Assembly: GCF_000701365.1 (NCBI RefSeq)
Contig: NZ_JNIK01000016.1
Coordinates: forward strand, 124,001 to 188,000
DNA from: Blastococcus sp. URHD0036
GTDB lineage: Bacteria; Actinomycetota; Actinomycetes; Mycobacteriales; Geodermatophilaceae
Direction: 5' to 3'
DNA length: 64,000 bases
Shown here: positions 1,745-31,446 of the stretch, piece by piece
How the letters are laid out: each line of letters starts with the position of its first letter
How positions within the stretch are numbered: position 1 is the first letter of the stretch
Notes under the pieces: generated by a model
Seen by the model: only the letters and a program-made list of their open reading frames with translations
What the model was told of the DNA's origin: nothing
Database searches by the model: none
Position numbers and translations under genes: made by a program

Positions 1745-1801
1745 GCGTTGTCCCTGAGGCGGCCACCTCGGCGTCCCGGATGGCCGGTCCGGGGACAACG
1801 C
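1745..1801 (+). repeat. 57-nt structured intergenic repeat, copy A
   Basis: The ends are perfect inverted repeats (GCGTTGTCCC at 1745-1754, GGGACAACGC at 1792-1801). An inner 6-bp stem is formed by CGGCCA (1760-1765) and TGGCCG (1781-1786). Layout is 10-5-6-15-6-5-10. The same layout and the same stem bases recur at 31390-31446, while the loops differ. It begins 18 nt after a stop codon and lies 89 nt before the next gene. Function unknown. Confidence 0.8.
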
Positions 1802-1878
1802 TGCGCCCCGCAGCGGGCCACTCCCGCTGGGTCTCCGGGTGCGGCAGTGGTCACCGGCGGGCAGTCCGCCGGCCGGTC

Positions 1879-1884
1879 TAGGGT
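1879..1884 (+). promoter_or_regulatory. -10 box of leaderless promoter (TAGGGT)
   Basis: TAGGGT ends 6 nt before the GTG at 1891, the spacing of leaderless actinobacterial mRNAs. Confidence 0.5.
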
Positions 1885-1890
1885 CGGGGC

Positions 1891-3201
1891 GTGACTGCAG
1901 CTGGGGCCGACCTGACCATCCGGCACCCGGTGGAGCGCTTCCGCCTGGACAACGGCCTGCGGGTCGTCCTGGCGCCCGACCGCAGCGTGCCGGTCGTGGC
2001 CGTGACCGTCTTCTACGACGTCGGGATGCGCAACGAGCCCGAGGGCCGCACCGGATTCGCCCACCTCTTCGAGCACCTGATGTTCCAGGGCTCGGCGCAC
2101 GTCCCGAAGATGGAGCACGCCCGGCTGGTGCAGGCCGCCGGCGGCACCTTCAACGGGTCGACGCACCAGGACTACACGAACTACTACGAGGCGCTGCCGG
2201 CCGAGGCGCTGGAGCGCGCGCTGTTCCTCGAGGCCGACCGCATGGCCGCCCCGGCGATCACCGCCGAGAACCTCCGCAACCAGATCGACGTGGTGAAGGA
2301 GGAGATCCGGGTCAACGTGCTCAACCGGCCCTACGGCGCCTTTCCCTGGCTGCAGTTGCCGACGGTGGCGTTCGAGAGCTTCGCCAACACCCACGACGGC
2401 TACGGCTCGTTCGTCGACCTCGAGTCCTCGACCGTCGACGACGCCGCGGACTTCTTCCACAAGTACTACGCGCCCGGCAACGCGGTGCTGTGCGTCGGCG
2501 GGGACCTCGACGTCGCCGAGACCGAGCGGCTGGTGCGCCGCTGGTTCGGCGCGGTCGACGCCCGCGACGTCCCCCCGACGCCGGCCACGGGGGAGGCCTC
2601 GCCGACGACCGTCCGCTCCGCCGTCGTCGAGGACCGGCTGGCCCCGGCCCCCGCGGTCGCCCTGGGCTGGCGGGTGCCCGACCCGGTCGGCGACCTCGAC
2701 ACCTACCTCGGCACCGTCCTGCTCGCCGAACTGCTCAGCGAGGGCGACGCGTCCCGCCTGGAGCGCCGGCTGGTGCACGACGACTCGCTCGCCGTCGCCC
2801 AGAGCAGCTACGTCGGGCTGTTCGGCGACCCCTTCGACGTCCGCGACGCCACGCTCCTCACCACCCAGGTCCACCACCCGGCCGCGGTGCCCGTCGACGC
2901 CGTCGTCGGCGCGGTGCACGAGGAGATCGCGAAGGTGGCAACCCAGGGCGTGGAGGCCGACGAGCTCGCGCGGGTGCAGGCCCGGGCCGAGGCGCAGCTG
3001 CTGCGCCAGGCCGACAGCGTGCTCGGCCGCACGCTCGAGTTCGCCGCCGCCGAGCTGGTCCACGGCCGGGCCGAGCTGGCCGGCGAGTTCGCCGCCCGCC
3101 TGGCCGCCGTCACACCCGAGCAGGTGCAGGCCGCCGCCCGGGGCCTGGATCCCGGCACGGTCGCCGTCCTCGAGCTGAAGGCCACGGGAGGAAAGCGATG
3201 A
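1891..3201 (+). CDS. M16 family zinc peptidase, catalytic member
   Basis: 436 residues, the usual size of a two-domain bacterial M16 (pitrilysin/insulinase) half-unit. The inverted zinc motif HxxEH is present (H58-L-F-E61-H62), and a downstream glutamate-rich VKEEI segment can supply the third ligand. An LDNGLRVVL start follows the family pattern. No signal peptide is seen, so it is probably cytosolic. GTG start with TAGGGT upstream. The stop overlaps the ATG of the next gene, which encodes a second M16 protein without the zinc motif; the two probably form an active/inactive heterodimer as in other bacterial M16B pairs. Substrate unknown. Confidence 0.9.
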   Translation: MTAAGADLTIRHPVERFRLDNGLRVVLAPDRSVPVVAVTVFYDVGMRNEPEGRTGFAHLFEHLMFQGSAHVPKMEHARLVQAAGGTFNGSTHQDYTNYYEALPAEALERALFLEADRMAAPAITAENLRNQIDVVKEEIRVNVLNRPYGAFPWLQLPTVAFESFANTHDGYGSFVDLESSTVDDAADFFHKYYAPGNAVLCVGGDLDVAETERLVRRWFGAVDARDVPPTPATGEASPTTVRSAVVEDRLAPAPAVALGWRVPDPVGDLDTYLGTVLLAELLSEGDASRLERRLVHDDSLAVAQSSYVGLFGDPFDVRDATLLTTQVHHPAAVPVDAVVGAVHEEIAKVATQGVEADELARVQARAEAQLLRQADSVLGRTLEFAAAELVHGRAELAGEFAARLAAVTPEQVQAAARGLDPGTVAVLELKATGGKR

Positions 3202-4577
3202 GTGCGCCGGTGCTCGACCTGGACCTGGTCCCGCCGCTGGGGGAGCCCCGGCCGCAGCCGGACCTCGCGGTGACCGAGCAGACCCTGCCCAACGGGCTGC
3301 GCGTCGTCGTCGTCCCACGGCCGGGCGTGCCGCTGGTGGAGCTGCGGCTGCGGGTGCCCTTCGCCGCCGGCACGGCGCGGGCCGCCGCGCAGCACGGCGC
3401 CCGGGCCTCGGTGCTCGCCGGTGCCGTCCTGCTCGGCACCGAGCAGCACGACCAGACCGAGATCGCCCAGCTCGTGCAGGCCCACGGCGGCGAGCTGGGG
3501 GTCTCCACCGACCCCGACCGGGTGCTGTTCTCCACCACCATCCTCACCGACGGGCTGGCTCCGGTCCTCGGCGTCCTGGCCGAGCTGCTCACCTCGGCCA
3601 CCTACCCGAACGCCCAGGTGGAGGCCGAGCGGGCCCGCGTGGCCGAACGGATCGCCATCGCCCGCTCGCAGCCCGGCGTCATCGCCCGGATCGCCCTGTC
3701 CGAGCGGCGCTACGGCGCGCACCCCTACGCCCTGCAGCTGCCTGCCGCCGAGCAGGTGGCGCTGGTCCGCTCGACCGCGCTGCGCAAGCTGCACCGCGAC
3801 CGGATCGTCCCGGCCGGCAGCACCCTGGTCCTCGTCGGCGACGTCGACCCGACCGCGGCCGTCGACGCCGCGGGCGCCGCCTTCGCCGGCTGGACCGGCG
3901 AGAAGAGCGCCGTCGTCGCGCCGCCGGTCACCGAGCAGCGCCACGGCGACCTGCAGGTGGTCGACCGGCCCGGCGCCGTGCAGTCCAACGTCCGCCTCGG
4001 TGGGCCGGCACCGCGCCGCACCGACCCCGACCTGGCCGCCGTCCGGCTGGCCAACATGGTCTACGGCGGGTACTTCTCGTCCCGGCTGGTGGAGAACATC
4101 CGCGAGCGGCGCGGCTACACCTACAGCCCGCGCAGCTCCGTGGACCACCTCGCTGCGTCGTCGTCGTTCGTCGTCGAGGCCGACGTCGCCACCGAGGTCA
4201 CCGGCCCGGCGCTGCTGGAGACGCTCTACGAGCTGGGCAGGATGGCGCTGCTCCCGGTCACGGAGGCCGAGCTCGACGGTGCCCGCCGCTACGTCCTGGG
4301 CAGCATGGCGCTGTCCACCGCGACCCACGCCGGCCTGGCCAGCACCCTCTCGGCCCTCATCGGCGCGGGGCTGGAGCCGGGCTGGCTCGCCGAGCACCAG
4401 CGCTCGCTGGCCGAGGTCAGCGTCGACAGCGTGCAGGAGGCCGCCCGGCGCTACCTGGCCCCCGACGCGCTGACCGCGGTCGTCGTCGGCGATGCGGCGC
4501 AGATCGCCGAGCCGCTGCGGGCCCTCGGCCCCGTGGTGGTCAGCGAGGCGGCGGACGCGCCGGCGGACGACGCGTGA
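3198..4577 (+). CDS. M16 family peptidase-like protein, non-catalytic partner
   Basis: 459 residues with M16 architecture (LPNGLRVVVV start, and ENIRERRGYTYSP in the second half, the substrate-binding R/Y motif of the partner chain). At the place where HxxEH should lie the sequence reads AQHGARASVLAG, so zinc cannot be bound as usual. The ATG overlaps the previous stop (ATGA), and a good AGGA Shine-Dalgarno lies just upstream. Its R/Y motif and the missing zinc site fit the inactive subunit of a heterodimeric M16B protease. Its own stop overlaps nudC (GTGA). Confidence 0.9.
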   Translation: MSAPVLDLDLVPPLGEPRPQPDLAVTEQTLPNGLRVVVVPRPGVPLVELRLRVPFAAGTARAAAQHGARASVLAGAVLLGTEQHDQTEIAQLVQAHGGELGVSTDPDRVLFSTTILTDGLAPVLGVLAELLTSATYPNAQVEAERARVAERIAIARSQPGVIARIALSERRYGAHPYALQLPAAEQVALVRSTALRKLHRDRIVPAGSTLVLVGDVDPTAAVDAAGAAFAGWTGEKSAVVAPPVTEQRHGDLQVVDRPGAVQSNVRLGGPAPRRTDPDLAAVRLANMVYGGYFSSRLVENIRERRGYTYSPRSSVDHLAASSSFVVEADVATEVTGPALLETLYELGRMALLPVTEAELDGARRYVLGSMALSTATHAGLASTLSALIGAGLEPGWLAEHQRSLAEVSVDSVQEAARRYLAPDALTAVVVGDAAQIAEPLRALGPVVVSEAADAPADDA

Positions 4578-5530
4578 CGGTCCCGGACGGCGGCAGCACG
4601 CCGGCGGACAACCCGCCGGTCAGTGACTCCTGGGGCGACGACATCCGCGCCACCACCGGCTTCGTGCCGGTCCTCTCCCGCTCCGCGCACGACCGGGCGC
4701 ACCTGTCCCGGGCGCTGCCCGACCCCACCGGCGGGCGGCCGGTCCGCGTGCTGACCGTCGACCCCCGCGGCGCCGTCCCGGTCCACCGCACGCCGGAGCG
4801 CCCGCGCCTGGTGTGGGACGAGCAGCCGGCCCTGCCGATCGGCGCCGTGTACCTGGGCGAGGCCGACGACGTCCCGTACGCGGCCATGCGTGGCGAGCGG
4901 GCCCTGACCGTCAACGGCCGCGACGTCGACGGCTGGCACGACCTGCGCGAGCTCGGCGCCGACCTGGACGACCTCGACGCGGGGCTGCTGGCGCAGGCGA
5001 TCGGCATCCTCGAGTGGCACTCCCGCGCGCGCTTCAGCCCGCTGTCCGGCGCGGCGACCACCATCGAGAAGGCCGGCTGGGTGCAGCGCGACCCGGTCAC
5101 CGGCGCCGAGCTGTTCCCGCGCACGGACCCCGCCGTGATCATGCTCGTGCACGACGGCGGCGACCGTTGCGTGCTCGGCCGCCAGGCGGTGTGGCCGCCC
5201 GGCCGGTTCTCGGTCCTCGCCGGCTTCGTCGAGCCGGGGGAGTCCGCCGAGGGCGCGGTGGCGCGCGAGGTGTTCGAGGAGGTCGGCGTGCACGTGACCG
5301 ACGTCCGCTACGTCGCCAGCCAGCCGTGGCCGTTCCCGCAGTCGCTGATGCTCGGCTTCATCGCCCGGCTCGACGGCGACGCCACGCTGCGGCTGGACCC
5401 GACCGAGATCGAGGAGGCCCGCTGGTTCACCCGCGACGAGCTGCGCAGCGGGGACGGCCCCCGCGTGCTGCCGCCGCCGGTGTCCATCGCGCGCAACATC
5501 ATCGACCGCTGGGTGGCCGGCGAGATCTAG
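4574..5530 (+). CDS. nudC: NAD(+) diphosphatase (Nudix hydrolase)
   Basis: 318 residues. Hydrolyses NADH to NMNH and AMP, and decaps NAD-capped RNA in family members. The Nudix box is intact around residues 217-239 (GFVEPGESAEGAVAREVFEE) and is followed by the NudC-specific SQPWPFPQS motif (249-257). The zinc-ribbon cysteines of the E. coli enzyme are absent from the segment before the Nudix domain (around residues 150-185), where only the FPRTDPAVI core remains. Translationally coupled to the M16 gene by GTGA. Its TAG lies in a CTAG shared with the convergent downstream gene. Confidence 0.93.
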   Translation: MTVPDGGSTPADNPPVSDSWGDDIRATTGFVPVLSRSAHDRAHLSRALPDPTGGRPVRVLTVDPRGAVPVHRTPERPRLVWDEQPALPIGAVYLGEADDVPYAAMRGERALTVNGRDVDGWHDLRELGADLDDLDAGLLAQAIGILEWHSRARFSPLSGAATTIEKAGWVQRDPVTGAELFPRTDPAVIMLVHDGGDRCVLGRQAVWPPGRFSVLAGFVEPGESAEGAVAREVFEEVGVHVTDVRYVASQPWPFPQSLMLGFIARLDGDATLRLDPTEIEEARWFTRDELRSGDGPRVLPPPVSIARNIIDRWVAGEI

Positions 5531-6144
5531 GCGAAGCGGCCCTGCAGCACCAGCGCGGGATGGTCGGGGGAGTCGGCCAGCACCACGGCGTCGGCCAGGC
5601 CCGCCGGGTCGACCTCGTCGTCGTAGCGGTCGTAGGCCGGCAGCTGCCACGCCTCCTCCGCAGGGGTCCGGCGGCGGCGCGCGGCCGGCGCGACCCGCAG
5701 GTGGACGACGGCGTCGAAGGCCAGGCCGAGCCCCTGGAGGAAGGCGCCGGCCACCAGCAGCGTCCCGCCGGCGTGCAGCGGCCGGCGCGGCACCCGGGCG
5801 GCTCGGTCCCGCTCGAGGTCCCAGAGCACCGGCAGGTACTCCCCGGTGCCACCCGGCCCGAGCGGGGTCAGGACCTCGCGGGCCAGCGCGCCGGCGTCCA
5901 GCCAGTCGGTGTAGCGGGCGTCGGGATCGGTGCGGCCGTGCTCGAGGCGCAGGGAGGCCGGCCGGTAGAAGCCCTCGGCGGGCACGACCGCGGCGGGCCG
6001 GCCCAGCACGGGGAGGCGATCGGCGACGGCGGTCGCCAGCCGCAGCGGGTCGGCGACGTCGGGACCGTCGACGGCCACCCGCAGGGCGGTCGCGCCCGGT
6101 TCCGGCGGGAGCGCGGAGATCAGCGCGGCCAGCCGGTCGGCCAA
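5527..6144 (-). CDS. Uridine kinase-like protein with degenerate P-loop
   Basis: 205 residues. The overall pattern resembles actinobacterial uridine-kinase-like P-loop proteins: a VAVDGP strand, a FYRP segment, WDLERDR and a C-terminal YDRYDDEVDPAGLADAVV region. The Walker A glycine-lysine-Ser/Thr is missing (VDGPDVADPLRLA), so ATP binding in the usual way is doubtful. The first usable start is TTG at 6144; an upstream CTG would add eleven residues. It follows the ANTAR gene on the same strand within 30 nt. Family membership is by resemblance only and kinase activity is uncertain. Confidence 0.6.
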   Translation of the reverse strand: MADRLAALISALPPEPGATALRVAVDGPDVADPLRLATAVADRLPVLGRPAAVVPAEGFYRPASLRLEHGRTDPDARYTDWLDAGALAREVLTPLGPGGTGEYLPVLWDLERDRAARVPRRPLHAGGTLLVAGAFLQGLGLAFDAVVHLRVAPAARRRRTPAEEAWQLPAYDRYDDEVDPAGLADAVVLADSPDHPALVLQGRFA

Positions 6145-6173
6145 CTCGTCGGGACCGAGGGGAACGGGTGCGG

Positions 6174-6815
6174 TCAGGAGCGGTCGTCCCCTGCGACGAC
6201 GGCGCCCGCACGGCTGCGAGCCCGGCGGCTCCCGGCGGCGCGCGGAGCCGGGGGCAGCGGCGCGTCGACCGGAGCGACGGGGCCGGGGGAGGGCGCGACG
6301 GTGGTGAGCGGGACCGCCGGGCGCCGGTCCAGCGGCTCGAGGACGGCGCGGGCGAGCTCGTGCACCGGGCGGCCGGTGCTGCGGGCCTGGCCGCGCAGCA
6401 GCTCGAACGCCGAACGGGGGGTGGTGCCGTGCCGCTCGGCCAGCACCCCGATGGCCCGCTCGGTGGCCACGCGGGCGGCGAGGGCGTGCTCCAGCTGCGC
6501 GACGGTGCGCTCGAGCTCGGCCACCCGGGCGTCCCGGGGGTCGGCCTCGGGCCCGGCGTCGGCCGGCGCGGGCCCGCGCGCGGCCCGGCGGGCGGTCGCG
6601 TCCGGCTGGGGGGCGGTGCCGGCCGCCTCCGCCAGCAGATCGGCGAGGGAGAGCCCCTCGAGCAGGTCGTGCACGTCGGCCGCCGCACCGGGGGAGACCA
6701 CGGACCAGCCGCGGGCGGTGCGCACCACCGTCACCTGGGGGAGGGCGGGAGCCTCCGCGGCGGCGGGGTCCGGGCAGCAGGCGGGAGCCCCAGCAGGGTG
6801 CTCGGGCTTGCTCAC
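6174..6815 (-). CDS. ANTAR-domain putative RNA-binding regulator
   Basis: 213 residues. Residues about 106-160 match the ANTAR domain, a three-helix RNA-binding antiterminator module (RVATERAIGVLAERHG, SAFELLRGQA, HELARAVLE). A basic Pro/Ala/Arg-rich tail follows. The N-terminal 90 residues hold a short folded-looking stretch (VTVVRTARGWSVVSPGAA) and no recognisable GAF, PAS or receiver domain. GTG start at 6815 with GGAGG 9 nt upstream. ANTAR proteins bind paired hairpins in mRNA leaders; the target here is unknown. The partner kinase of the PdtaS class is at 47.1 kb, but PdtaR carries a receiver domain and this protein does not. Confidence 0.82.
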   Translation of the reverse strand: MSKPEHPAGAPACCPDPAAAEAPALPQVTVVRTARGWSVVSPGAAADVHDLLEGLSLADLLAEAAGTAPQPDATARRAARGPAPADAGPEADPRDARVAELERTVAQLEHALAARVATERAIGVLAERHGTTPRSAFELLRGQARSTGRPVHELARAVLEPLDRRPAVPLTTVAPSPGPVAPVDAPLPPAPRAAGSRRARSRAGAVVAGDDRS

Positions 6816-6931
6816 GTCTCCGACCTCCGAGAGGGACCGGCCGTCACCGGGCGCAGGCCGCCCGGTGCGACCGTCGGACCGATCATGCCCTGTGCTGCGC
6901 CGTTGCCGGGAGACCCGGGTGGCGCGGCCGG

Positions 6932-7195
6932 TCAGGCGCCGGGCAGCTGAGCCAGCTGGGCCTTGACCTGGTCGAGGGTCGGGTTGGTGAGCGCGACGCC
7001 GTCGGCGAACACGAGGGTCGGGACCGTCCGGTTCCCGCCGTTGGCGGCCATGACCAGGTCCGCGGCGCCCTCGGTCACCTCGATGTCGACCTCGGCGAAC
7101 TCGATCCCCTCGCGCTGCATCAGCTTCTTCAACCGGTTGCAGTAGCCACACCAGGTGGTGCTGTACATCGTCACGGCGGCGGTCGCGGCGGTCAT
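6932..7195 (-). CDS. mrx1: Mycoredoxin (glutaredoxin-like)
   Basis: 87 residues with a thioredoxin fold and an active-site CGYC at residues 16-19, followed by the cis-Pro region NRTVPTLVF. Mycoredoxins reduce protein-mycothiol mixed disulfides in the cytosol of actinobacteria. ATG start with GGAGGA about 9 nt upstream. A sigma-R type promoter lies about 60 nt upstream on the same strand (7280 to 7253). The location next to uvrD2 and whiB7 matches other actinobacteria (M. tuberculosis Rv3198A). Confidence 0.92.
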   Translation of the reverse strand: MTAATAAVTMYSTTWCGYCNRLKKLMQREGIEFAEVDIEVTEGAADLVMAANGGNRTVPTLVFADGVALTNPTLDQVKAQLAQLPGA

Positions 7196-7252
7196 CGAGG
7201 GGTCCTCCAGGCTGTCGTACGGATCCGGGACGGTTCCGCTGTCCCGACCGGG

Positions 7253-7280
7253 CAACACCGCCGGTGTGGGGATGCTTCCC
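7253..7280 (-). promoter_or_regulatory. Sigma-R type promoter for mycoredoxin
   Basis: Read on the minus strand: GGGAAG (7280-7275), 18 nt, GTTG (7256-7253). This is one base from the GGGAAT-N18-GTT consensus of SigR/SigH promoters. The predicted RNA start near 7246 gives a leader of about 50 nt. Confidence 0.65.
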
Positions 7281-7313
7281 CGGACCGTCGGTGCCGACTG
7301 GGAGTATCGGGGG

Positions 7314-9308
7314 GTGAGTGCGGGAGAACGGGGCGGCGAGGCCGTGCTGGCCGGTCTGGACGACGAGCAGCGGGCCGCGGCCTCGGCGGTGAGCGGCCCG
7401 GTCTGCATCCTCGCCGGCGCCGGCACGGGCAAGACCCGCACGATCACCCACCGCATCGCCTACGGCGTGCACGTCGGCGCCTTCGCCCCCGAGACGGTGC
7501 TGGCCGTCACCTTCACCGCCCGGGCCGCGGGGGAGCTGCGCACCCGGCTGGCGGCCCTCGGCGTGGGCGGCGTGCAGGCGCGCACCTTCCACGCCGCGGC
7601 GATGCGCCAGCTGCGCTACTTCGCCCCCCAGGTGCTCGGCGGGCCGATGCCGCCGCTCATCGAGAACAAGCTGCGGGTCGTGGGCAACGCCGCGGCCCGT
7701 GCCCGGCTGACCACCGACCGCACCAGCCTGCGCGACCTCGCCAGCGAGATCGAGTGGGCCAAGACCACCCTCGCCACGCCGGAGGACTACCCGGCGCGGG
7801 CGAAGGCGGCCGGGCGCGAGCCGCCGTTCGAGGCGGCCGCCGTCGCGCAGGTCTACGCCTCCTACGAGGCGGCCAAGCAGCGTGACGGGGCGCTGGACTT
7901 CGAGGACCTCCTGCTGGTCACCGCCTATGCCCTCGAGGAGCACCAGCAGGTCTCCCGGCAGATCCGCACCCAGTACCGGCACTTCGTCGTCGACGAGTAC
8001 CAGGACGTCAACCCGCTCCAGCAGCGGCTGCTCGACGCCTGGCTCGGCGGCCGGGCCGACGTCTGCGTCGTCGGCGACCCCAACCAGACGATCTACTCCT
8101 TCACCGGCGCCGACCCCGACTACCTGCTCGGCTTCGCCGACCGGTATCCCGACGCCGAGGTCGTGAAGCTCGAGCGCGACTACCGCTCCACCCCGCAGGT
8201 GGTCGGCCTGGCCAACAAGCTCATCGGCCAGGCCCCCAAGCGCAAGGGCCTTCCCGGGCTGCGGCTGCTGGGCCAGCGCGCCGAGGGCCCGGCGCCGCGG
8301 TTCGCCGAGCACCCCGACGAGCCGGCCGAGGCCAAGGCGGTAGCGGCGGCCTGCCGGGAGCTGGTCGACGCCGGCACCCCCGCCGCCGAGATCGCCATCC
8401 TGTTCCGGATCAACGCGCAGTCCGAGGTGTACGAGAACGCGCTGACCGACGTCGGCGTCCCGTACGTCCTCAAGGGCGGGGAGCGCTTCTTCGAGCGGCC
8501 CGAGGTCCGCGAGGCGCTGCTGCTGCTCCGGGGCGCCGCGGCCGGCGGGAGCGAGCCGGGCGCCCTGGTGCCCACGGTGCGCGACGTCCTGGCCTCCACC
8601 GGCTGGGTCGAGCACCGGCCCCCGGCCGGTGGCGCCGCGCGAGACCGCTGGCAGTCGCTGTCCGCCCTCGTCGACCTCGCCGTCGACCTGGTCGCCGAGA
8701 ACCCCGCCCTCGACCTGCCCGGTTTCGTCGGGCACCTCGCGCAGCGGGCCGACGCCCAGCACGCGCCGACGGTGCAGGGCGTCACGCTCGCCTCGATGCA
8801 CGCGGCCAAGGGGCTGGAATGGGACGCGGTCTTCGTCGTCGGCCTGGTCGACGGCGTGCTCCCCATCTCGCAGTCGCTGTCCCGTCCCGACGCCGTCGAG
8901 GAGGAGCGCCGGCTGCTGTACGTCGCCGTCACCCGCGCGCGCGAGCAGCTCACCCTCTCCTGGTCGCTGGCCCGCAACCCCGGCGCGCGGCGCAACCGGC
9001 CGCGCAGCCGGTTCCTCGACGGGCTGGCACCGGACTCCGCCGCGGCGGTGCCGGCGCGGAAGCCGAAGAAGGCCAAGGTCGTGCTCGACGGCGAGGCCGG
9101 GGAGCTGTTCGAGCGGCTGCGCGCCTGGCGCAGCTCCGCGGCCCAGGCGGCCTCCGTGCCCGCCTACGTCGTCTTCAACGACTCCACCCTGCAGGCGATC
9201 GCCGAGACCCGGCCCTCGACGCTGCGCGAGCTGGGCGGCCTCCCCGGCATCGGCGCCAAGAAGCTGGAGCTCTACGGCGAGGACGTGCTGGCGACCGTCA
9301 GCGAGTGA
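7314..9308 (+). CDS. uvrD2: ATP-dependent DNA helicase UvrD2
   Basis: 664 residues, superfamily 1A 3'-5' helicase. Walker A is AGAGTGKT (34-41), the Q-motif region LDDEQRAA precedes it, Walker B is VVDEYQDVNP, and motif VI VAVTRAREQL is present. The last 70 residues form an HRDC domain (ELGGLPGIGAKKLELYGED), the hallmark of actinobacterial UvrD2 compared with UvrD1. GTG at 7314 is chosen; an in-frame ATG at 7272 would add 14 residues but overlaps the sigma-R promoter of mrx1. The cysteine motif between helicase and HRDC domains described in mycobacterial UvrD2 is not evident. Confidence 0.93.
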   Translation: MSAGERGGEAVLAGLDDEQRAAASAVSGPVCILAGAGTGKTRTITHRIAYGVHVGAFAPETVLAVTFTARAAGELRTRLAALGVGGVQARTFHAAAMRQLRYFAPQVLGGPMPPLIENKLRVVGNAAARARLTTDRTSLRDLASEIEWAKTTLATPEDYPARAKAAGREPPFEAAAVAQVYASYEAAKQRDGALDFEDLLLVTAYALEEHQQVSRQIRTQYRHFVVDEYQDVNPLQQRLLDAWLGGRADVCVVGDPNQTIYSFTGADPDYLLGFADRYPDAEVVKLERDYRSTPQVVGLANKLIGQAPKRKGLPGLRLLGQRAEGPAPRFAEHPDEPAEAKAVAAACRELVDAGTPAAEIAILFRINAQSEVYENALTDVGVPYVLKGGERFFERPEVREALLLLRGAAAGGSEPGALVPTVRDVLASTGWVEHRPPAGGAARDRWQSLSALVDLAVDLVAENPALDLPGFVGHLAQRADAQHAPTVQGVTLASMHAAKGLEWDAVFVVGLVDGVLPISQSLSRPDAVEEERRLLYVAVTRAREQLTLSWSLARNPGARRNRPRSRFLDGLAPDSAAAVPARKPKKAKVVLDGEAGELFERLRAWRSSAAQAASVPAYVVFNDSTLQAIAETRPSTLRELGGLPGIGAKKLELYGEDVLATVSE

Positions 9309-9375
9309 CCGTCGACACACCGTCTCGACATGGCGGCGGTCGGCACGCTCGTCCCGCGTCCGGAGGACGCGCCCG

Positions 9376-9414
9376 TTAATTGCGTTGACCCCCTTCCGCG
9401 GCGCCCCCTACTGT
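9376..9414 (+). promoter_or_regulatory. whiB7 promoter with AT-rich autoregulatory box
   Basis: TTAATT (9376-9381), three bases, -35 TTGACC (9385-9390), 18-nt spacer, -10 TACTGT (9409-9414). In mycobacteria and Streptomyces the WhiB7 AT-hook binds an AT-rich stretch about 3 bp upstream of -35 of its own promoter. The arrangement here is the same. Confidence 0.75.
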
Positions 9415-9507
9415 CCTGATCGCGCCCGGGGAGAAACCTCGGGCCGCACCAGCTCCGGTGCCGCCGACCACGGCTGCACCGCGTCCCCGGGAGGAGGGGT
9501 GCCACAG

Positions 9508-21095: not shown

Positions 21096-21169
21096 CGCGG
21101 GGTGGAGCAGCTCGGTAGCTCGCTGGGCTCATAACCCAGAGGTCGCAGGTTCGAATCCTGCCCCCGCTA
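21096..21169 (+). tRNA. tRNA-fMet (CAT), copy 1
   Basis: Cloverleaf with CAT anticodon in the loop CTCATAA. The three G-C pairs at the base of the anticodon stem (GGG/CCC) and the unpaired C1-U72 end of the acceptor stem identify an initiator tRNA. The T stem is GCAGG/CCTGC. CCA is not encoded (CACA follows A73). TAGAGT, 12 nt before the 5' end, is a likely -10 box. Confidence 0.95.
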
Positions 21170-21175
21170 CACAGA

Positions 21176-21210
21176 CAGGGCCCCGGCACTCATCGAGTGC
21201 CGGGGCCCTG
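21176..21210 (+). terminator. Terminator after tRNA-fMet copy 1
   Basis: Perfect 15-bp stem (21176-21190 with 21196-21210), loop CATCG, 6 nt after the tRNA. Confidence 0.85.
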
Positions 21211-21243
21211 TGCCGTCCGGGGCGATGTCCAGGAGGTCCAGCG

Positions 21244-23777: not shown

Positions 23778-23808
23778 GCCGTCGCCGACCCGCCGGCCCG
23801 GTCGCGGC

Positions 23809-24318
23809 TCAGAGCACGTGCTGGCCGTACATCTCGCCGAGCGGGTCGGCGATCAGCTCGATGCGCGCACCGTCGGGGTCGCGGAAGTAGACCGACACCC
23901 CGCTGTGCACCTCGTGCGGCACGCCGGCGTCGGCCAGCCGCTGCACGAGCTCCTGCCAGCGGCCCGGCTCCACGCTGATCGCCATGTGGTGCAGGCCGCC
24001 GAGCACCTCCGCGTAGGGGCCGACGTCCAGCCCGGGGAAGTCGAAGAAGGCGATCAGGTTGCCGTTGCCGATGTCGAAGAAGAAGTGCGAGGAGCCGGGG
24101 TAGTCCCGGTTCTCGATCAGCTCGGTGAGCGGGAAGCCGAGCACGTCCTGGTAGAAGCGGACCGTCCGTTCGACGTCGGAGCTGATCAGCGCGGTGTGGT
24201 GCAGGCCCCGCGCGGTCGAGGGCGGGCGCTCGGCAGCCGGGTGCAGGTGGGCCGCACGCAGCCGCGCCCGCTCGGCCTCGACAGCGGCGGGATCCGGCCG
24301 GTGCTCGGGAGTGCTCAT
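23809..24318 (-). CDS. VOC family (glyoxalase/dioxygenase superfamily) protein
   Basis: 169 residues. Two beta-alpha-beta-beta-beta modules: GLHHTALISSDVERTVRFYQ at about 43-62 and GLHHMAISVEPGRWQEL later, ending with YFRDPDGARIELIAD. Metal-ligand candidates are the His in LHHTAL, the His in LHHMAI and the Glu in RIELIA. Probably a metal-dependent dioxygenase or isomerase on a small molecule. The N-terminus is an Arg/Ala-rich helix. It diverges from the P450 gene. Confidence 0.85.
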   Translation of the reverse strand: MSTPEHRPDPAAVEAERARLRAAHLHPAAERPPSTARGLHHTALISSDVERTVRFYQDVLGFPLTELIENRDYPGSSHFFFDIGNGNLIAFFDFPGLDVGPYAEVLGGLHHMAISVEPGRWQELVQRLADAGVPHEVHSGVSVYFRDPDGARIELIADPLGEMYGQHVL

Positions 24319-24421
24319 GCCGTCGATCCTCCCGCGTCGCGACCCGTGCGGCAGGGAGCTTGACGACGGATGTGACCCGGGCCACCGTGAGGGGGTTCGC
24401 GCACCGATCCCTGGAGGTCCG

Positions 24422-25702: not shown

Positions 25703-25884
25703 CCCGGGTGCAGGTGGACCGCGAGCGGTGCATCAGCAGCGGCGTGTGCGAGCACGTCGCGCCGGCGGTGTTCGAGCTGGACGACGACGGCGTGCTCCAG
25801 GTGCTGCAGGCCGAGCCGGACGACCCGGCGGCGGCCGCCGAGGCGGTCCGGGGGTGCCCCAGCGGCGCGCTGAGTTTCAGCTGA
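25699..25884 (+). CDS. [3Fe-4S] ferredoxin
   Basis: 61 residues. Cysteines: one in DRERCISSG, one in GVCEHVAP and one in RGCPSGAL, with Ser where a fourth ligand of a [4Fe-4S] cluster would be, as in P450-linked [3Fe-4S] ferredoxins. GTG overlaps the P450 stop (GTGA). Its 3' end overlaps the convergent metB by 8 nt. Confidence 0.92.
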   Translation: MTRVQVDRERCISSGVCEHVAPAVFELDDDGVLQVLQAEPDDPAAAAEAVRGCPSGALSFS

Positions 25885-27013
25885 GGGCCCGCTCCAGGTC
25901 GGCGAGCAGGTCCTCGGCGTCCTCGATGCCCACCGACAGCCGCACCAGGTCGGACGGCACCTCCAGCGGTGACCCGGCGGCGCTGGCGTGGGTCATCCGG
26001 TGCGGGTGCTCGACCAGCGACTCGACCCCGCCCAGGGACTCGGCGAGGGTGAACAGCTCGGTGCGCTCGCAGAGCCGGAGCGCCGCCTCCTCGCCGCCGG
26101 CCAGCCGGACCGACACCATCCCGCCGAAGGCCGACATCTGCCGGGCCGCGATCGCGTGGCCGGGGTGCTCGGGCAGTCCGGGGTAGAGGACGGCGGACAC
26201 CTCGGGCCGCGCGGAGAGGAACTCCACGACCCGTTCGGCGTTGGCGCAGTGCCGGTCCATGCGGACGCCCAGGGTCTTGATCCCGCGCAGCACCAGCCAG
26301 GCGTCGAAGGGGCCGTTGACCGCGCCCATGGCGTTCTGGTGGAAGGCCAGCTGCTCGGCGAGGTCGGGGTCGGCCACCACGAGCGCGCCGCCGACGACGT
26401 CGGAGTGCCCGCCCAGGTACTTCGTCGTCGAGTGGACGACGACGTCCGCGCCGAGGGTCAGCGGCCGTTGCAGGTAGGGCGAGGCGAAGGTGTTGTCGAC
26501 GACGAGCAGCGCCCCGGCCGTGTGCGCGATCTCGGCCAGCCCGGCGATGTCGGCGATGTTGAGCAGCGGGTTGGTCGGCGTCTCGCACCACAGGACGGCG
26601 GTCGTGTCGCGCATCGCCGCACGGACGGCGGACAGGTCGCCCAGGTCGACCGGCGTGTGCTCCACCCCCCAGCGCGCGGCGACCTTCGACAGCAGCCGGA
26701 ACGTGCCGCCGTACGCGTCACCGGCCAGGACGACGTGGGAGCCGGGGGAGCAGACGGTGCGCAGCAGGGTGTCCTCGGCGGCCAGGCCGGAGGCGAAGGC
26801 CAGGCCGCGGCTGCCCTCCTCGAGGGCGGCCAGCGCCTCCTGCAGCGCGGTCCGGGTGGGGTTGGCGCTGCGGCTGTACTCGTAGCCGCCGCGCAGCCCG
26901 CCGACGCCGTCCTGCTTGTACGTCGTCGTCAGGTGCAGCGGCGGCACCACCGCCCCGGTCGCCGGGTCGGGGTCCTGCCCGGCGTGGATGGCCCTGGTGC
27001 TGAAACCCGTCAT
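25877..27013 (-). CDS. metB: Cystathionine gamma-synthase
   Basis: 378 residues, Cys/Met-metabolism PLP fold type I. Start FSTRAIHAGQDPDP, substrate loop YEYSRSANPTR, and PLP lysine in VVHSTTKYLGGHSDVVGG are typical. Joins O-acyl-homoserine and cysteine into cystathionine; cystathionine gamma-lyase activity is possible given the neighbour. The ATG overlaps the cbs stop (ATGA), so cbs-metB form an operon for interconversion of cysteine and homocysteine. Confidence 0.92.
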   Translation of the reverse strand: MTGFSTRAIHAGQDPDPATGAVVPPLHLTTTYKQDGVGGLRGGYEYSRSANPTRTALQEALAALEEGSRGLAFASGLAAEDTLLRTVCSPGSHVVLAGDAYGGTFRLLSKVAARWGVEHTPVDLGDLSAVRAAMRDTTAVLWCETPTNPLLNIADIAGLAEIAHTAGALLVVDNTFASPYLQRPLTLGADVVVHSTTKYLGGHSDVVGGALVVADPDLAEQLAFHQNAMGAVNGPFDAWLVLRGIKTLGVRMDRHCANAERVVEFLSARPEVSAVLYPGLPEHPGHAIAARQMSAFGGMVSVRLAGGEEAALRLCERTELFTLAESLGGVESLVEHPHRMTHASAAGSPLEVPSDLVRLSVGIEDAEDLLADLERALS

Positions 27014-28407
27014 GCGCCGACCGTAGGCGCGAGGCCCGCCAGGTGGCCGAGCACGTCCTGCCGGGTGACGACGCCGGCGGGCTTGCCGTCGACGTGCACG
27101 AGCAGGGCGTCGGCCGAGCCGAGGGCGGCCACCGCGGCGCTGACCGCCTCACCGGAGCCGATGATCGGCAACGGGGCCGACATGTGCGTCTCCACCCGGT
27201 CCGCGAGCGAGGCGCGGCCGGCGAACAGGGCGTCGAGCAGCACCTTCTCGTCGACGGAGCCCACGACCTCGCCCGCGGTCACCGGCGGCTCGGCGCGCAC
27301 GACCGGCAGCTGGCTGACGCCGTACTCGCGGAGGATGTCGATGGCGTCGCGGACGGTCTCCTTCGGGTGGGTGTGCACCAGAGTCGGGGTCGCGCCGGAC
27401 TTCGCGTGCAGCAGCTCGCCGACGGTCTCGCCCGAGGTCGTCGAGTCGAGGAACCCGTAGTCGGCCATCCAGTCGTCGTTGAAGATCTTGTTCAGGTAGC
27501 CGCGACCGCCGTCGGGCAGGAGCACCACCATCACGTCGTCCTTCGTCAGCTGCTCGGCGGCGCGCAGCGCGGCCGCGACCGCCATGCCGCAGGAGCCGCC
27601 GACCAGCAGGCCCTCCTCGCGGGCCAGCCGCCGGGTCATCGCGAACGAGTCGCCGTCGGAGACCGGGATGATCTGGTCGGCGATCTCCCGGTCGTAGGTC
27701 GAGGGCCAGAAGTCCTCGCCGACGCCCTCGACCAGGTACGGCCGGCCGGTGCCGCCGGAGTAGACCGAGCCCTCGGGGTCGGCGCCGACGATGCGCACCC
27801 GGCCGCCGGAGACCTCCTTCAGGTACCGCCCGATGCCGCTGATCGTGCCGCCGGTGCCCATGCCGGTGACGAAGGTGGTGATCCGGCCCTCGGTCTGCGC
27901 CCAGATCTCCGGGCCGGTCGTCTCGTAGTGCGACTGCGGGTTGGCCGGGTTGGAGTACTGGTCGGGCTTCCAGCCGCCGGGCGTCTCGCGGGCCAGCCGG
28001 TCGGACACCGAGTAGTACGAGCGCGGATCGGACGGGTCGACGGCGGTGGGGCAGACGACGACCTCGGCGCCGTAGGCCTTCAGGACGTTGATCTTCTCCT
28101 GGCCGACCTTGTCGGGGCAGATGAAGATGCACCGGTAGCCGCGCTGCTGGGCGACCAGCGCCAGGCCGATTCCGGTGTTGCCGCTGGTCGGCTCCACGAT
28201 CGTGCCGCCCGGCTGCAGGGCCCCGCTGGCCTCCGCGGCGTCGACCATCCGGACGGCGATGCGGTCCTTCACCGACCCGCCGGGGTTGAGGTACTCGACC
28301 TTGGCCAGCACCAGGGGCGCGTCGGGGCCCAGATCGCGGGTGACCGACCGCAGCCGGACCAGCGGGGTGTCGCCGACCAGGTCGACGACGGACTCGGCGT
28401 ACTGCAC
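27010..28407 (-). CDS. cbs: Cystathionine beta-synthase
   Basis: 465 residues. PLP lysine in [20 protein letters not shown] binding loop, GTGGTISG phosphate loop, and a C-terminal pair of CBS domains (from about residue 340, [19 protein letters not shown] then [19 protein letters not shown]). Condenses serine and homocysteine to cystathionine. GTG start with AGGAGG 7 nt upstream; the longer frame is not supported. No heme-binding N-terminal extension, as in other bacterial forms. Operon with metB. Confidence 0.94.
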
Positions 28408-28508
28408 GGCGGTTCCTCCTCTGCGGCGCCCGCGGCAGGCGCCCGCCCCCATCCCACCACCCGCCCCCCGTCCCGGCCGCCCGCGCTGCGCAGGGCCAGG
28501 ATGGGGCC

Positions 28509-29516
28509 ATGACCTCGTCTCCTCCCTCCCGGACGCTCGGCGACGGGCTGCAGGTGCCGGCCCTCGGACTCGGCTGCATGGGCATGAGCCAGATGTACGG
28601 AGCCGCCGACCGCGCGGAGTCGATCGCGACGATCGCCCGGGCGCTGGACCTCGGCGTGACCTTCCTCGACACCTCTGACGTCTACGGCGACGGGCACAAC
28701 GAGGAACTCGTCGGCGAGGCGATCGACGGCCGCCGCGACGAGGTGCAGCTGGCCACGAAGTTCTCGCTCTCCCGGGGGGAGGGCCGGATGCGGATCGACG
28801 GCCGGCCGGAGAACGTGCGGGCCTGCGCCGAGGCGAGCCTGCGCCGGCTGGGCGTCGACACCATCGACCTCTACTACCAGCACCGCGTCGACCCGACGGT
28901 CCCGATCGAGGACACCGTGGGCGCCATGGCCGAGCTCGTGCAGCAGGGCAAGGTGCGCCACCTCGGGCTGTCGGAGGCCAGCGCCGCGTCGATCCGCCGC
29001 GCGGTGGCCGTGCACCCGATCGCGGCGCTGCAGAGCGAGTGGTCGCTGTGGACCCGGGACCTCGAGGTGGAGGTGCTGGGGGTCGCCCGGGAGCACGGGA
29101 TCGGCATCGTGCCGTACAGCCCGCTCGGTCGCGGGTTCCTCACCGGTGCGATCACCAGCCCGGCCGACTTCGAGGACGACGACGCCCGCCGGAGCATGCC
29201 GCGGTTCCAGGGCGAGGCCTTCACGGCCAACCTGCGGCTGGTCGAGGCCGTCCGCGCGATGGCGGAGGAGCGGGGTGCCACGGCGGGGCAGCTGGCGCTG
29301 GCGTGGGTGCTGGCGCAGGGGCCGGACGTCGTCCCGATCCCCGGCACGAAGCGCCGCAGCTACCTCGAGGAGAACGTGGGCGCCCTCGCGGTGACCTTGA
29401 CCGACGACGACCTGCGCCGGCTGGCCGAGATCGCCCCGCCCGACGTCGCGGCGGGCGCGCGGTACAGCGCCGTGGCGCCCGGCTACGGCGACAGCCCGGA
29501 GCGGAGGGCCGCGTGA
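28509..29516 (+). CDS. Aldo/keto reductase
   Basis: 335 residues, TIM barrel. Catalytic tetrad: Asp and Tyr in FLDTSDVYG, Lys in LATKFSLS, His in [13 protein letters not shown]-binding segment [15 protein letters not shown] at the C-terminus. Similar to AKR13/yakc-type oxidoreductases acting on aldehydes. The stop overlaps the XdhC-like gene (GTGA). Upstream it diverges from cbs. Confidence 0.9.
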
Positions 29517-29974
29517 GCGCCGAGCGGGTCCTCGTCGCCGTCTTCGCCTCACCCGTCGCCGACGTGCTCCTGCGCTGGGCGCCGGAGCTGGGCTACCGGA
29601 CGGCGCTGCTCGACCCGGATCCCGACCGCGGGGCCGGGGCGCTCCGGATCGAGGATCTCGACGTCCCCGTCGAGGCCGCCGACGTCGTCGTCACCGACCA
29701 CCACCGGCCGGAGCTCGGCGAGGTGCTGCGCGACGTGCTGGCCGGCCCGGCGCGCTGGGTCGGGCTGATGGGCAACCCACGGCACGAGGGCCCGCACATC
29801 GCGGCGCTGACCGCGCTGGGTGTGCCGGCGGCCGACATCGCGCGGGTGCACCGCCCGATCGGGCTCGACATCGGGTCGAAGGCGCCCGCGGAGATCGCGC
29901 TCAGCACCCTCGCCGGGCTGCTGGCCGACCGGAACGGCCGCGCCGGCGGCCAGGCGCACGGCCGCCCAGCCTGA
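29513..29974 (+). CDS. XdhC-like Rossmann-domain protein, short
   Basis: 153 residues. Corresponds to the C-terminal Rossmann part of XdhC/CoxI proteins ([68 protein letters not shown]). The N-terminal cysteine-bearing XdhC_CoxI domain that handles sulfurated molybdenum cofactor is absent. No molybdenum hydroxylase gene is in the window. Coupled to the aldo/keto reductase by GTGA. Role in cofactor insertion is therefore uncertain. Confidence 0.8.
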
Positions 29975-29976
29975 GC

Positions 29977-30780
29977 TCAGGCGGAGGTCGGCGGCTTCAG
30001 GCGGGCCAGGGCCGCCTCGTGCAGCAGCCCGTTCGTGGCCAGGGCGCTGCCGCCGGTCGGGCCCGGCGTCCCGCTGACGTCGGTGAAGGTGCCACCGGCC
30101 TCGCGCACGATCACGTCGAGCGCGGCGAGGTCCCACACGGAGACCTCGGGCTCGCAGGCCACGTCGACCGCGCCCTCGGCGAGCAGCACGTAGCTCCAGA
30201 AGTCGCCGTAGGCGCGGGTGCGCCACACGTCGCGGGTCAGGTCGAGGAAGCCGTCGAGCATGCCGCGCTCCTCCCAGCCCGACAGGGAGGAGTAGCTGAG
30301 GCTCGCGTCGGCCAGCTCGGCCACCCCCGACACCCGGCAGCGGGTCGCGGACTCCAGGCGCCGGCCGGTCCAGGCGCCCACGCCCTTGGCCGCCCACCAG
30401 CGCCGGTTGAGCGCCGGCGCGGAGACGAGCCCGACGACCGGCTCGTCGCCGTCGAACAGGGCGATGAGCGTGGCCCAGACGGGTACGCCGCGGACGAAGT
30501 TCTTGGTGCCGTCGATGGGGTCCAGCACCCAGCGGCGCGGCCCGTGCCCGGTCGTGCCCATCTCCTCGCCGAGGACGGCGTCGCGGGTCCGGGCGCGGGC
30601 CAGGGTGATCCGCAGCTGCTCCTCGACGGCCCGGTCGGCGTCGGTGACCGGGGTGAGGTCCGGCTTGGTGTCGACCTGGAGGTCCTGTGCCTTGAACCGG
30701 TCCATGCTGATGGAGTCGGCCTGATCGGCCAGTACGTGCGCCAGGTGCATGTCCCCGGTGTGGTCGCGCCCCGACGTCAT
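29977..30780 (-). CDS. hisN: Inositol monophosphatase family, histidinol-phosphatase type
   Basis: 267 residues. Motifs TPVTDADRAVEEQLR, LGEEMG (first metal Glu), WVLDPIDGTKNFVRG (DPIDGT) and VWDLAALDVIVREAGG are those of the IMPase family. The NFVRGVPVWATLIAL form is typical of actinobacterial HisN, the histidinol-phosphate phosphatase, but inositol-1-phosphatase cannot be excluded. ATG start; TAGGTT 8 nt upstream suggests a leaderless transcript. The 44 nt to the divergent DUF2087 gene hold both promoters. Confidence 0.85.
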   Translation of the reverse strand: MTSGRDHTGDMHLAHVLADQADSISMDRFKAQDLQVDTKPDLTPVTDADRAVEEQLRITLARARTRDAVLGEEMGTTGHGPRRWVLDPIDGTKNFVRGVPVWATLIALFDGDEPVVGLVSAPALNRRWWAAKGVGAWTGRRLESATRCRVSGVAELADASLSYSSLSGWEERGMLDGFLDLTRDVWRTRAYGDFWSYVLLAEGAVDVACEPEVSVWDLAALDVIVREAGGTFTDVSGTPGPTGGSALATNGLLHEAALARLKPPTSA

Positions 30781-30788
30781 GGACACCG

Positions 30789-30816
30789 AACCTAGCGGGC
30801 CCGGGCTGGTTACCGT
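30789..30816. promoter_or_regulatory. Divergent -10 boxes (hisN / DUF2087 gene)
   Basis: Minus TAGGTT (30794-30789) serves the gene starting at 30780. Plus TACCGT (30811-30816) ends 7 nt before GTG 30824. Confidence 0.45.
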
Positions 30817-30823
30817 CGCAGGT

Positions 30824-31372
30824 GTGGACGCCAGACCCGACGCGATGACCGTCGCGGGGCTGCTCGCCGACCCGACCCGCCTCAAGGTGGTGGCGGCGCT
30901 GGCGCTCGGCGCGGGGACGATCGAGGAGGTCGCCGAGGCCTCCGGGCTCTCGCTCAAGGACGTCGCGCTGGCCGCCCGGCGGCTGGCCCGCGCCGGGCTC
31001 GTGCGCCGCGACCGGCACGCGCTGGAGCTGCTGACCGAGCGGTTCGGTGCCGCTGCCCGCGCCGCGGCGGAGTCCGCGCCCCGGCCCGAGCCGCTGTCGG
31101 ACGACCCCGCCGAGGACGCCGTCCTGTCGGCGTTCGTCCGGGACGGCCGGCTGGTCTCGATCCCGGCGCAGGCGACCAAGCGGCGGGTGGTGCTCGAGCA
31201 CCTGGTCCGGGTGTTCGACGCCGGCGTCCGCTACCCCGAGCGGGAGGTCAACGCCCTGCTGGCCGTCTGGCACCCCGACACCGCGGCGCTGCGGCGGTAC
31301 CTGGTCGACGCGGGGCTGCTCACCCGCGAAGCCGGGGTCTACTGGCGCAGCGGCGGCTGGGTCGACGTCTGA
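30824..31372 (+). CDS. DUF2087 winged-helix transcription regulator
   Basis: 182 residues. N-terminal ArsR-like winged helix (LADPTRLKVVAALALGAGT, EVAEASGLSLKDVALAARRL) followed by a DUF2087 domain (RRVVLEHLVRVFDAGVRYPE, EVNALLAVWHPDTAALRRYL). No metal-binding cysteines of ArsR sensors are present. The leaderless GTG start is supported by TACCGT. Target unknown; it may regulate itself and the divergent hisN. Followed 18 nt later by repeat copy B. Confidence 0.87.
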   Translation: MDARPDAMTVAGLLADPTRLKVVAALALGAGTIEEVAEASGLSLKDVALAARRLARAGLVRRDRHALELLTERFGAAARAAAESAPRPEPLSDDPAEDAVLSAFVRDGRLVSIPAQATKRRVVLEHLVRVFDAGVRYPEREVNALLAVWHPDTAALRRYLVDAGLLTREAGVYWRSGGWVDV

Positions 31373-31389
31373 GCCTGGCGGCGCGACAG

Positions 31390-31446
31390 GCGTTGTCCCT
31401 CTGCCGGCCACTCTGCCCGGCCGTCTGGCCGATCGCGGGACAACGC
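31390..31446 (+). repeat. 57-nt structured intergenic repeat, copy B
   Basis: Same ends (GCGTTGTCCC 31390-31399, GGGACAACGC 31437-31446), same inner stem CGGCCA/TGGCCG and same total length as copy A. The 5-nt internal loops and 15-nt apical loop differ. Begins 17 nt after a stop codon and 45 nt before the next gene on the same strand. Confidence 0.8.

What the first reader, a model, noticed from the sequence alone, without database searches (positions are those of the whole stretch)
1745..31446. 57-nt structured intergenic repeat present twice with conserved stems and variable loops
Copies at 1745-1801 and 31390-31446 have the same length and the same order 10-5-6-15-6-5-10. All 32 stem bases are identical (GCGTTGTCCC, CGGCCA, TGGCCG, GGGACAACGC), while loops differ. 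Both start 17-18 nt after a stop codon and precede a gene on the same strand. This could be a REP-like or miniature element, a terminator family, or an RNA element.
Basis: seen in the sequence. Interest (0 to 1): 0.7.

Follow-up and report, generated by a model that had tools for sequence, protein, structure and literature searches.

The report
Dispersed palindromes paired with a nuclease
The 57-base palindromes are scattered copies of a sequence that also brackets a DNA-cutting-enzyme gene elsewhere in this genome, and such gene-plus-matching-palindrome pairs recur, each with its own palindrome, in many actinobacteria, which looks like an undescribed counterpart of the REP palindromes and their transposases.

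Summary
In detail: all 32 stem bases identical, loops free. The copies belong to a family: 4 in the genome with perfect outer arms, 12 with at most 3 mismatches (reversed control 0). Two of the 12 bracket an intact 304-aa gene beside clpX on another contig; it encodes an AbiEi-like part plus a Vsr-like nuclease domain (DUF559/MTES_1575). Relatives of this gene are generally bracketed by palindromes of the same geometry but different arms: 42 of 81 on both sides, 35 on one (shuffled 4 and 34 of 243). The two flanks of one gene match each other, also outside the family (17 of 27 loci; other pairings 1 of 310). Arm sequence tracks nuclease sequence (Mantel r 0.46). Copies are commoner where the matching nuclease is present, also after removing flanking copies, though less strongly. 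Congeners lack both window copies. Best reading: dispersed cognate sites of a nuclease, a REPtron-like partnership built on an enzyme unrelated to HuH transposases. Binding, cutting and copying are inferred, not shown. The papers searched hold no description. A known RNA family is not supported; a terminator is unlikely.

The parts
1745..1801 (.). 57-nt palindrome, type A, copy 1 (G000:C15:125745-125801)
   Evidence: exact pattern match; element absent at the orthologous site of congeners G001 and G002
1745..1754 (.). copy 1 left outer arm GCGTTGTCCC
1760..1765 (.). copy 1 left inner arm CGGCCA
   Evidence: inner arms have 3 mismatches in 144 over 12 genome copies
1781..1786 (.). copy 1 right inner arm TGGCCG
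1792..1801 (.). copy 1 right outer arm GGGACAACGC
31390..31446 (.). 57-nt palindrome, type A, copy 2 (G000:C15:155390-155446)
   Evidence: exact pattern match; site short and empty in congener G002, unrelated sequence in G001
31390..31399 (.). copy 2 left outer arm
31405..31410 (.). copy 2 left inner arm CGGCCA
31426..31431 (.). copy 2 right inner arm TGGCCG
31437..31446 (.). copy 2 right outer arm

Best explanation
The window copies are dispersed cognate sites of a two-domain nuclease (N-terminal AbiEi-like DNA-binding region, C-terminal Vsr-like DUF559/MTES_1575 domain). Its gene sits in this genome at G000:C1:128794-129708 next to clpX, bracketed by two copies of the same palindrome. Shown here: the bracketing, the match of arm types between the two flanks, the co-variation of arm sequence with nuclease sequence, an excess of copies where the matching nuclease is present, absence at orthologous sites of congeners, and constraint on arms but not loops. 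Inferred: two nuclease molecules bind the two 21-nt half-sites of the 57-bp palindrome (or of its hairpin) and cut there, and repair or copying of such breaks has seeded solo copies between genes. It works like a REPtron (an enzyme gene with its cognate REP palindromes) but with an unrelated, non-HuH enzyme.
For: Copies: 12 in the genome, reversed control 0; 60 of 112 family genomes have at least one, 159 hits against 11 reversed-control hits. Spacing: with any spacer allowed within a 31-nt range, 12 of 18 family hits have exactly the 57-nt spacing, 1 is one nt shorter, 5 others look unrelated. Bracketing: 42 of 81 both sides, 35 one side, 4 none; shuffled flanks 4, 34, 205 of 243; far or in-gene windows 3, 44, 115 of 162. 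Palindromes are about 40 times denser beside the genes than further out (69 of 27,720 against 12 of 191,579 positions at length 57). Matched flanks: 48 of 80 in the family (other pairings 125 of 948), 17 of 27 in other families (1 of 310). Co-variation: Mantel r 0.46 for outer arms, largest of 999 permutations 0.13; partial r 0.36 with residues 56-217 (AbiEi-like part) given the nuclease part, 0.15 the other way (no permutation run for that pair). Dosage, all hits: type-A copies 4.80 in 20 genomes with a type-A nuclease only, 1.12 in 16 with type-C only, 2.50 in 2 with both, 0.54 in 74 with neither; type-C copies 0.35, 2.19, 1.00, 0.30. After taking two copies off every type-A genome: 2.91 against 0.64 (p 1e-4); after taking listed flanking hits off type-C: 1.33 against 0.31 (p 2e-5). 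Domains over 40 aligned members at E 0.01: MTES_1575 40, DUF559 38, PADLOC AbiEi PDLC02228 36. C-terminal model pLDDT 86, top structural match I-Bth0305I. I-Bth0305I dimerises on a site of nearly 60 bp (PMC3943268, passages); the AbiEi-like Rv2827c binds pairs of 23-bp inverted repeats 13 bp apart, 59 bp in all (PMC7319586, passages). Absence in congeners.
Against: No binding, cutting or copying has been shown. No target-site duplication was seen, and no genome pair close enough to define an exact solo insertion was examined. No two of the 12 copies share a loop, so recent spread is not visible, and lasting constraint on arms could mean host function rather than selfishness. Type-A hits are 0-2 in 6 of 22 type-A genomes and at least 3 in 4 of 90 others. 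If two copies are taken off every type-C genome the type-C excess is no longer significant (0.78 against 0.31, p 0.11). Some hits are plainly not elements (for example a coding-like segment recurring in several genomes) and were not removed from the counts; none of the tests corrects for phylogeny. Length 57 is not singled out: odd lengths from 47 to 75 are 18- to 49-fold enriched. One flank lacks a palindrome at 35 of 81 loci. In a 400-kb sample of G399 only the two flanking palindromes were found. The G000 protein scores just below the Pfam cut-off for MTES_1575 (36.8 against 38.2) and for AbiEi_1, but above it for DUF559. Structure-search E-values are weak (best 0.006) and the full-length model failed (pLDDT 33).
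Confidence: 0.57

Rival explanations
1. Operator sites of an AbiEi-like repressor. The protein autoregulates by binding the upstream palindrome, and the solo copies are operators of a small regulon; the nuclease domain acts elsewhere (for example on phage DNA).
For: AbiEi proteins autoregulate through inverted repeats (PMC7319586, passages; PMC3985639, listing and abstract start only). The N-terminal part matches AbiEi models. Arms are under lasting constraint. Window copy 1 ends about 90 nt before an M16 peptidase gene.
Against: The downstream palindrome starts 14, 7 or 4 nt before the end of the nuclease gene in 41 of 63 cases, where an operator is not expected. Several solos lie between frames that converge (heuristic). 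They are absent from the same sites in congeners.
Confidence: 0.2
2. A transcription-terminator or RNA-hairpin family that happens to lie on both sides of these genes.
For: Strong folding; positions just after stop codons; full-arm compensatory pairing in type C (selected sequences); in type-C genomes such as L269 and L284 the palindrome itself is the hairpin next to the clpX end.
Against: No T-tract at copy 1; sequence-exact arms that follow the neighbouring nuclease type; no Rfam family. In the unit-bearing loci printed a separate GC-rich hairpin follows clpX before the palindrome (by eye); but a strict count, perfect stem of 9 or more, found any hairpin there in only 5 of 30 clpX loci, so this point is weak.
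Confidence: 0.08
3. Ordinary REP/REPIN elements mobilised by an unseen HuH TnpAREP (RAYT), with the DUF559 gene a frequent neighbour only.
For: Size, apparently intergenic position and constrained arms resemble REPs.
Against: The bracketed proteins have no HuH transposase match; the window copies lack a GTAG or GTGG foot; arm type follows the DUF559 protein. Presence of a RAYT elsewhere in G000 was not tested.
Confidence: 0.05
4. Remains of a mobile unit (palindrome-nuclease-palindrome). Solos are left by recombination between the two palindromes, like solo LTRs, and the unit moves by homing.
For: At the clpX site G030 keeps one palindrome, G067 a weaker one seen by eye, G059 two palindromes about 70 nt apart with no recognisable gene, and G056 none. 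Units occur at other loci too and on either strand beside clpX.
Against: In G000 there are ten solos and one unit; this route alone would need former units at ten sites. It may add to the best explanation rather than replace it.
Confidence: 0.15

Closest known systems
REPtron (HuH TnpAREP/RAYT with cognate REPs)
   Same: A gene for a DNA-processing enzyme bracketed by palindromes; dispersed copies of the same palindrome; one palindrome type per enzyme, several types per lineage; a stable, low-copy enzyme gene (PMC6006769, passages; PMC8266576, introduction).
   Different: The enzyme is AbiEi-like plus Vsr-like, not HuH; no GTAG foot on the window copies; 57 nt against 20-50; at most 12 hits per type and genome in the searches here, not hundreds; found here in Actinomycetota.
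EDxHD homing endonucleases such as I-Bth0305I
   Same: Similar catalytic domain and a very long target, nearly 60 bp, bound as a dimer (PMC3943268, passages).
   Different: Not in an intron or intein; the gene is bracketed by its putative target instead of interrupting it, and there are dispersed copies.
AbiEi antitoxin/regulator (type IV toxin-antitoxin)
   Same: The N-terminal half matches AbiEi models; AbiEi binds paired 23-bp inverted repeats (PMC7319586, passages).
   Different: A nuclease domain is fused on; palindromes lie on both sides and are dispersed; toxin partners were not looked for.
DUF559/REase_MTES_1575 proteins
   Same: Same Pfam domains; the domain was described as a Vsr-type REase (PMC3710099, passages).
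   Different: The two passages read mention no palindromes, and no word beginning with palindrom occurs in that paper's main text.

Membership tests
REPtron / REP-TnpAREP | bracketed gene encodes a HuH Y1 transposase | tested here: not met
   Pfam scans of 40 aligned members and of the G000 protein show MTES_1575, DUF559 and AbiEi (plus one stray sulfotransferase match), no Y1 transposase
REPtron / REP-TnpAREP | GTAG/GTGG tetranucleotide at the foot of the REP | tested here: not met
   read directly at the two window copies only: TCAAG|GCGTTG and GACAG|GCGTTG
REPtron / REP-TnpAREP | cognate palindromes flank the gene | tested here: met
   42 of 81 both sides, 35 one side, 4 none; G000 unit read
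REPtron / REP-TnpAREP | copies dispersed in intergenic regions | tested here: met
   12 copies; 10 of 12 overlap no high-GC3 frame, the other 2 only frames whose start codon falls inside the element (heuristic, no gene caller)
REPtron / REP-TnpAREP | enzyme processes single-stranded palindrome | not testable with these tools
   needs biochemistry
EDxHD homing endonuclease | matching catalytic domain with conserved acidic and histidine residues | tested here: met
   invariant D231, E242, H249, D258 and nearly invariant D244 in A1; profile match to 3r3p E 0.0034; Foldseek top hit 3r3p, E 0.006
EDxHD homing endonuclease | gene inserted in an intron or intein and interrupting its target | tested here: not met
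   free-standing gene between two palindromes beside clpX
AbiEi type IV antitoxin | AbiEi DNA-binding domain | tested here: met
   PADLOC PDLC02228 in 36 of 40; Pfam AbiEi_4 in 12 of 40, AbiEi_1 in 3 of 40
AbiEi type IV antitoxin | adjacent DUF1814 nucleotidyltransferase toxin | not tested
   neighbours of the units were not scanned
MITE | target-site duplication at copies | tested here: inconclusive
   flanks diverge too far from the empty sites
intrinsic terminator | stem followed by T-tract | tested here: not met
   0 found in window 1600-2000, around copy 1; copy 2 not scanned, its 3' flank reads CCGAAC
known structured RNA | match to an Rfam family at gathering score | tested here: not met

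The most novel reading that the evidence does not exclude
Actinobacteria carry a phylum-wide class of nuclease-palindrome partnerships unrelated to HuH transposases. An AbiEi-guided, Vsr-like nuclease recognises a long palindrome as a dimer, keeps a pair around its own gene, generates and maintains dispersed copies between genes, and changes its palindrome specificity as it diversifies, often in place next to clpX.
Probability: 0.5. Interest if true: 0.9.

Novelty: categorically new. Interest (0 to 1): 0.8.

Why it matters
REP elements are known partners of HuH transposases, and some palindrome families (the CGTC type) are said to lack a dedicated enzyme (PMC3733652, abstract and passages). 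A second, unrelated enzyme class with its own palindromes would show that the partnership arose more than once, and would give a testable function to DUF559 proteins, which Pfam still labels as of unknown function. Because each nuclease appears to carry its own binding sites beside it, many protein-DNA specificity pairs could be read straight from genomes, which makes recognition and its evolution directly testable.

Tried and rejected
Short half-site pattern: 1,073 forward hits against 385 control; too loose, dropped. Recent duplication: rejected, loops differ. RNA families: no match at gathering score. Terminator reading: thought unlikely; my first claim that most units also have a separate clpX terminator did not survive a count (5 of 30 by a strict criterion) and was withdrawn. 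Full-length structure without an alignment: failed (pLDDT 33); replaced by the C-terminal domain with viral relatives. Plasmid search with the nuclease: no match. Viral contigs: 69 loci, by the table most matches cover the nuclease domain only; not examined for palindromes. Target-site duplication: not resolvable. Dispersed copies in two other genomes: G192, 4 places in a 400-kb sample against 0 for reversed palindromes and 1 for the other genome's palindromes, as two tandem pairs just after likely genes; G399, none beyond the flanking pair.

Rows dropped and limits. The 90 nuclease loci are 30 fetched by the search plus 60 I chose mostly by going down the list, which is itself cut short, so sampling favours close relatives of the query. 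Searches used 81 of 90 (protein length limits); one search used 107 of 118 (80 family, 27 other). The phylum search scored only five candidates per genome, so 71 of 396 is a lower bound. The covariation part used 43 of 66 type-C hits, those with a visible inner palindrome, which favours pairing at positions 16-26 and perhaps 11-15. The type-A and type-C nuclease lists were set by me from identity and flank type. One search kept elements with at least 4 of 6 inner pairs. The dosage counts include the copies that flank the nuclease; removes them in two ways.
Full report
OBSERVATION. Both copies are exactly as described: 57 nt, 10-5-6-15-6-5-10, all 32 stem bases identical, 18 and 17 nt after a stop codon, followed by a + strand frame. 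Shuffled windows never contain the pattern.

A FAMILY IN THE GENOME. Exact outer arms at this spacing occur 4 times in the 5.18-Mb genome, reversed control 0; with up to 3 mismatches, 12 times, control 0. In the 12 copies the inner arms, not used in the search, differ from CGGCCA at 3 of 144 positions, while the central 15 nt are 41% identical between copies (35% shuffled) and the spacers 50% (34%). Arms are constrained and the centre is not; no two copies share a loop. Ten of 12 overlap no likely coding frame, and the other two overlap only frames with a start codon inside the element (a GC3 heuristic).

THE PARTNER GENE. Across 112 genomes of the family, 60 have at least one hit (159 hits against 11 control). 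In several genomes two hits lie about 1,023 bp apart. Between them lies a gene of about 300 codons with MTES_1575 and DUF559 domains next to clpX (identified). This genome has the same arrangement at C1:128751-129834, with an intact 304-aa gene; its protein passes the Pfam cut-off for DUF559 and falls just short for MTES_1575. The downstream palindrome starts 14, 7 or 4 nt before the gene end in 41 of 63 cases; the upstream one most often ends 68 nt before the start (10 of 56).

GENERALITY. I examined 90 related genes. Most of the 81 usable ones have a palindrome of the same 56-57-nt geometry on at least one side, but with different arms, for example CCGTTGAACG..GGCCCAGAACC (type C), GCGATGTGCG (B), AGCGTGTGCG (D), ACGGTGTGCG (E), CGGTTGCGCC (F). 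Both sides 42, one side 35, neither 4; shuffled flanks 4, 34, 205 of 243; windows away from or inside the genes 3, 44, 115 of 162. Palindromes are far denser beside the genes than further out; that test does not single out length 57. Upstream and downstream flanks of one gene resemble each other in 48 of 80 loci (above the shuffled 99th percentile); other pairings 125 of 948, because types recur. In a draw of 396 genomes across the phylum at least 71 have a homologue; of 27 usable loci from other families 17 have matching flanks against 1 of 310 other pairings. By inspection the convincing palindromes there are about 49-57 nt, and many loci show none.

SPECIFICITY. Arm distance correlates with nuclease distance (Mantel r 0.46 outer, 0.36 inner; largest permuted 0.13 and 0.16), more with residues 56-217 given the nuclease part (partial 0.36) than the reverse (0.15). 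Copy number follows the resident nuclease: type-A copies 4.80 on average with a type-A nuclease only, 1.12 with type-C only, 2.50 with both, 0.54 with neither; type-C copies 0.35, 2.19, 1.00 and 0.30. These counts include the copies that flank the gene. With two copies taken off every type-A genome the means are 2.91 against 0.64 (p 1e-4); with the listed flanking hits taken off, type-C means are 1.33 against 0.31 (p 2e-5; at least one solo in 12 of 18 against 23 of 94 genomes), but with two taken off every type-C genome the difference is not significant (0.78 against 0.31, p 0.11). Not corrected for phylogeny, and chance hits were not removed. Exceptions: 6 of 22 type-A genomes have 0-2 hits, 4 of 90 others have 3 or more.

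TURNOVER. Neither window copy is present at the orthologous site of the two congeners; in G002 both sites are plainly short. Downstream of clpX at least 69 of 100 genomes carry a nuclease gene, 46 convergent and 23 in the same direction, with different palindrome types. Some genomes without an intact gene there show other states: two palindromes about 70 nt apart (G059), one palindrome (G030; a weaker one by eye in G067), none (G056), or a gene fragment (G043, G080, G089, G010).

PROTEIN. Of 40 aligned members 40 match MTES_1575, 38 DUF559, and 36 a PADLOC AbiEi model. D231, E242, H249 and D258 are invariant. A profile finds 3hrl and the mobile-intron endonuclease 3r3p; the predicted C-terminal domain (pLDDT 86) has 3r3p as its top match, at a weak E-value.

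MECHANISM. I-Bth0305I dimerises on nearly 60 bp (PMC3943268, passages), and the AbiEi-like Rv2827c binds 23-bp inverted repeats 13 bp apart (PMC7319586, passages). A dimer on two 21-nt half-sites 15 nt apart would explain the fixed spacing with free loops. In type A only spacer position 14 pairs above expectation, which fits duplex binding; in type C all spacer positions 11-15 change together (81-93% paired against 34-72% expected, selected sequences), which fits a hairpin or template-switch correction of palindromes. Which form is recognised is open. Cutting followed by repair as the route of copying is inference.

KNOWN SYSTEMS. The anatomy is that of a REPtron (PMC6006769 and PMC3733652, passages; PMC8266576, introduction), but the defining HuH enzyme and, at the window copies, the GTAG foot are absent, so it is not a member. 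Searches for DUF559 with palindromic or repeat terms, DUF559 alone, MTES_1575, REP terms with actinobacteria, Geodermatophilaceae with palindromic, and Vsr with palindromic repeats showed no description; I saw listings and the cited passages only, and the library lacks most subscription journals.

VERDICT. The association is strong; the function is inferred. I call it categorically new because the enzyme class differs from the known palindrome partners, while what it resembles in working is a REPtron.

Noticed in passing
window 1804-1864, next to copy 1: A weak palindrome (17 of 30 pairs) directly follows copy 1 and is also absent from congener G002; perhaps a decayed second element.
   Followed up: partly
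clpX downstream site, e.g. L268, L289, L303, L288: The same site holds nuclease units of different types and orientations, remnants, single palindromes or nothing in different genomes.
   Followed up: partly
G013:C16:190588-190869 and G007:C31:89553-89734: Tandem runs of three and two palindromes, 93-132 bp apart start to start.
   Followed up: no
L388:11116-11240 and L393:11929-12052: In another family (G192) tandem pairs of about 49-51-nt palindromes lie right after likely genes, one pair between frames that look like purH and folD (names by recall).
   Followed up: partly
G000:C11:110689-111471 and C18:329331-329537: Two further matches to the nuclease in this genome, one a fragment; their palindromes were not examined.
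   Followed up: no
window 52197-52252, 44884-44941, 32224-32279, 21164-21222: Other strong hairpins of unrelated sequence, perhaps ordinary terminators.
   Followed up: no
L305-L373 (viral contigs): Phage contigs carry related nuclease domains, by the table mostly without the AbiEi-like half.
   Followed up: no
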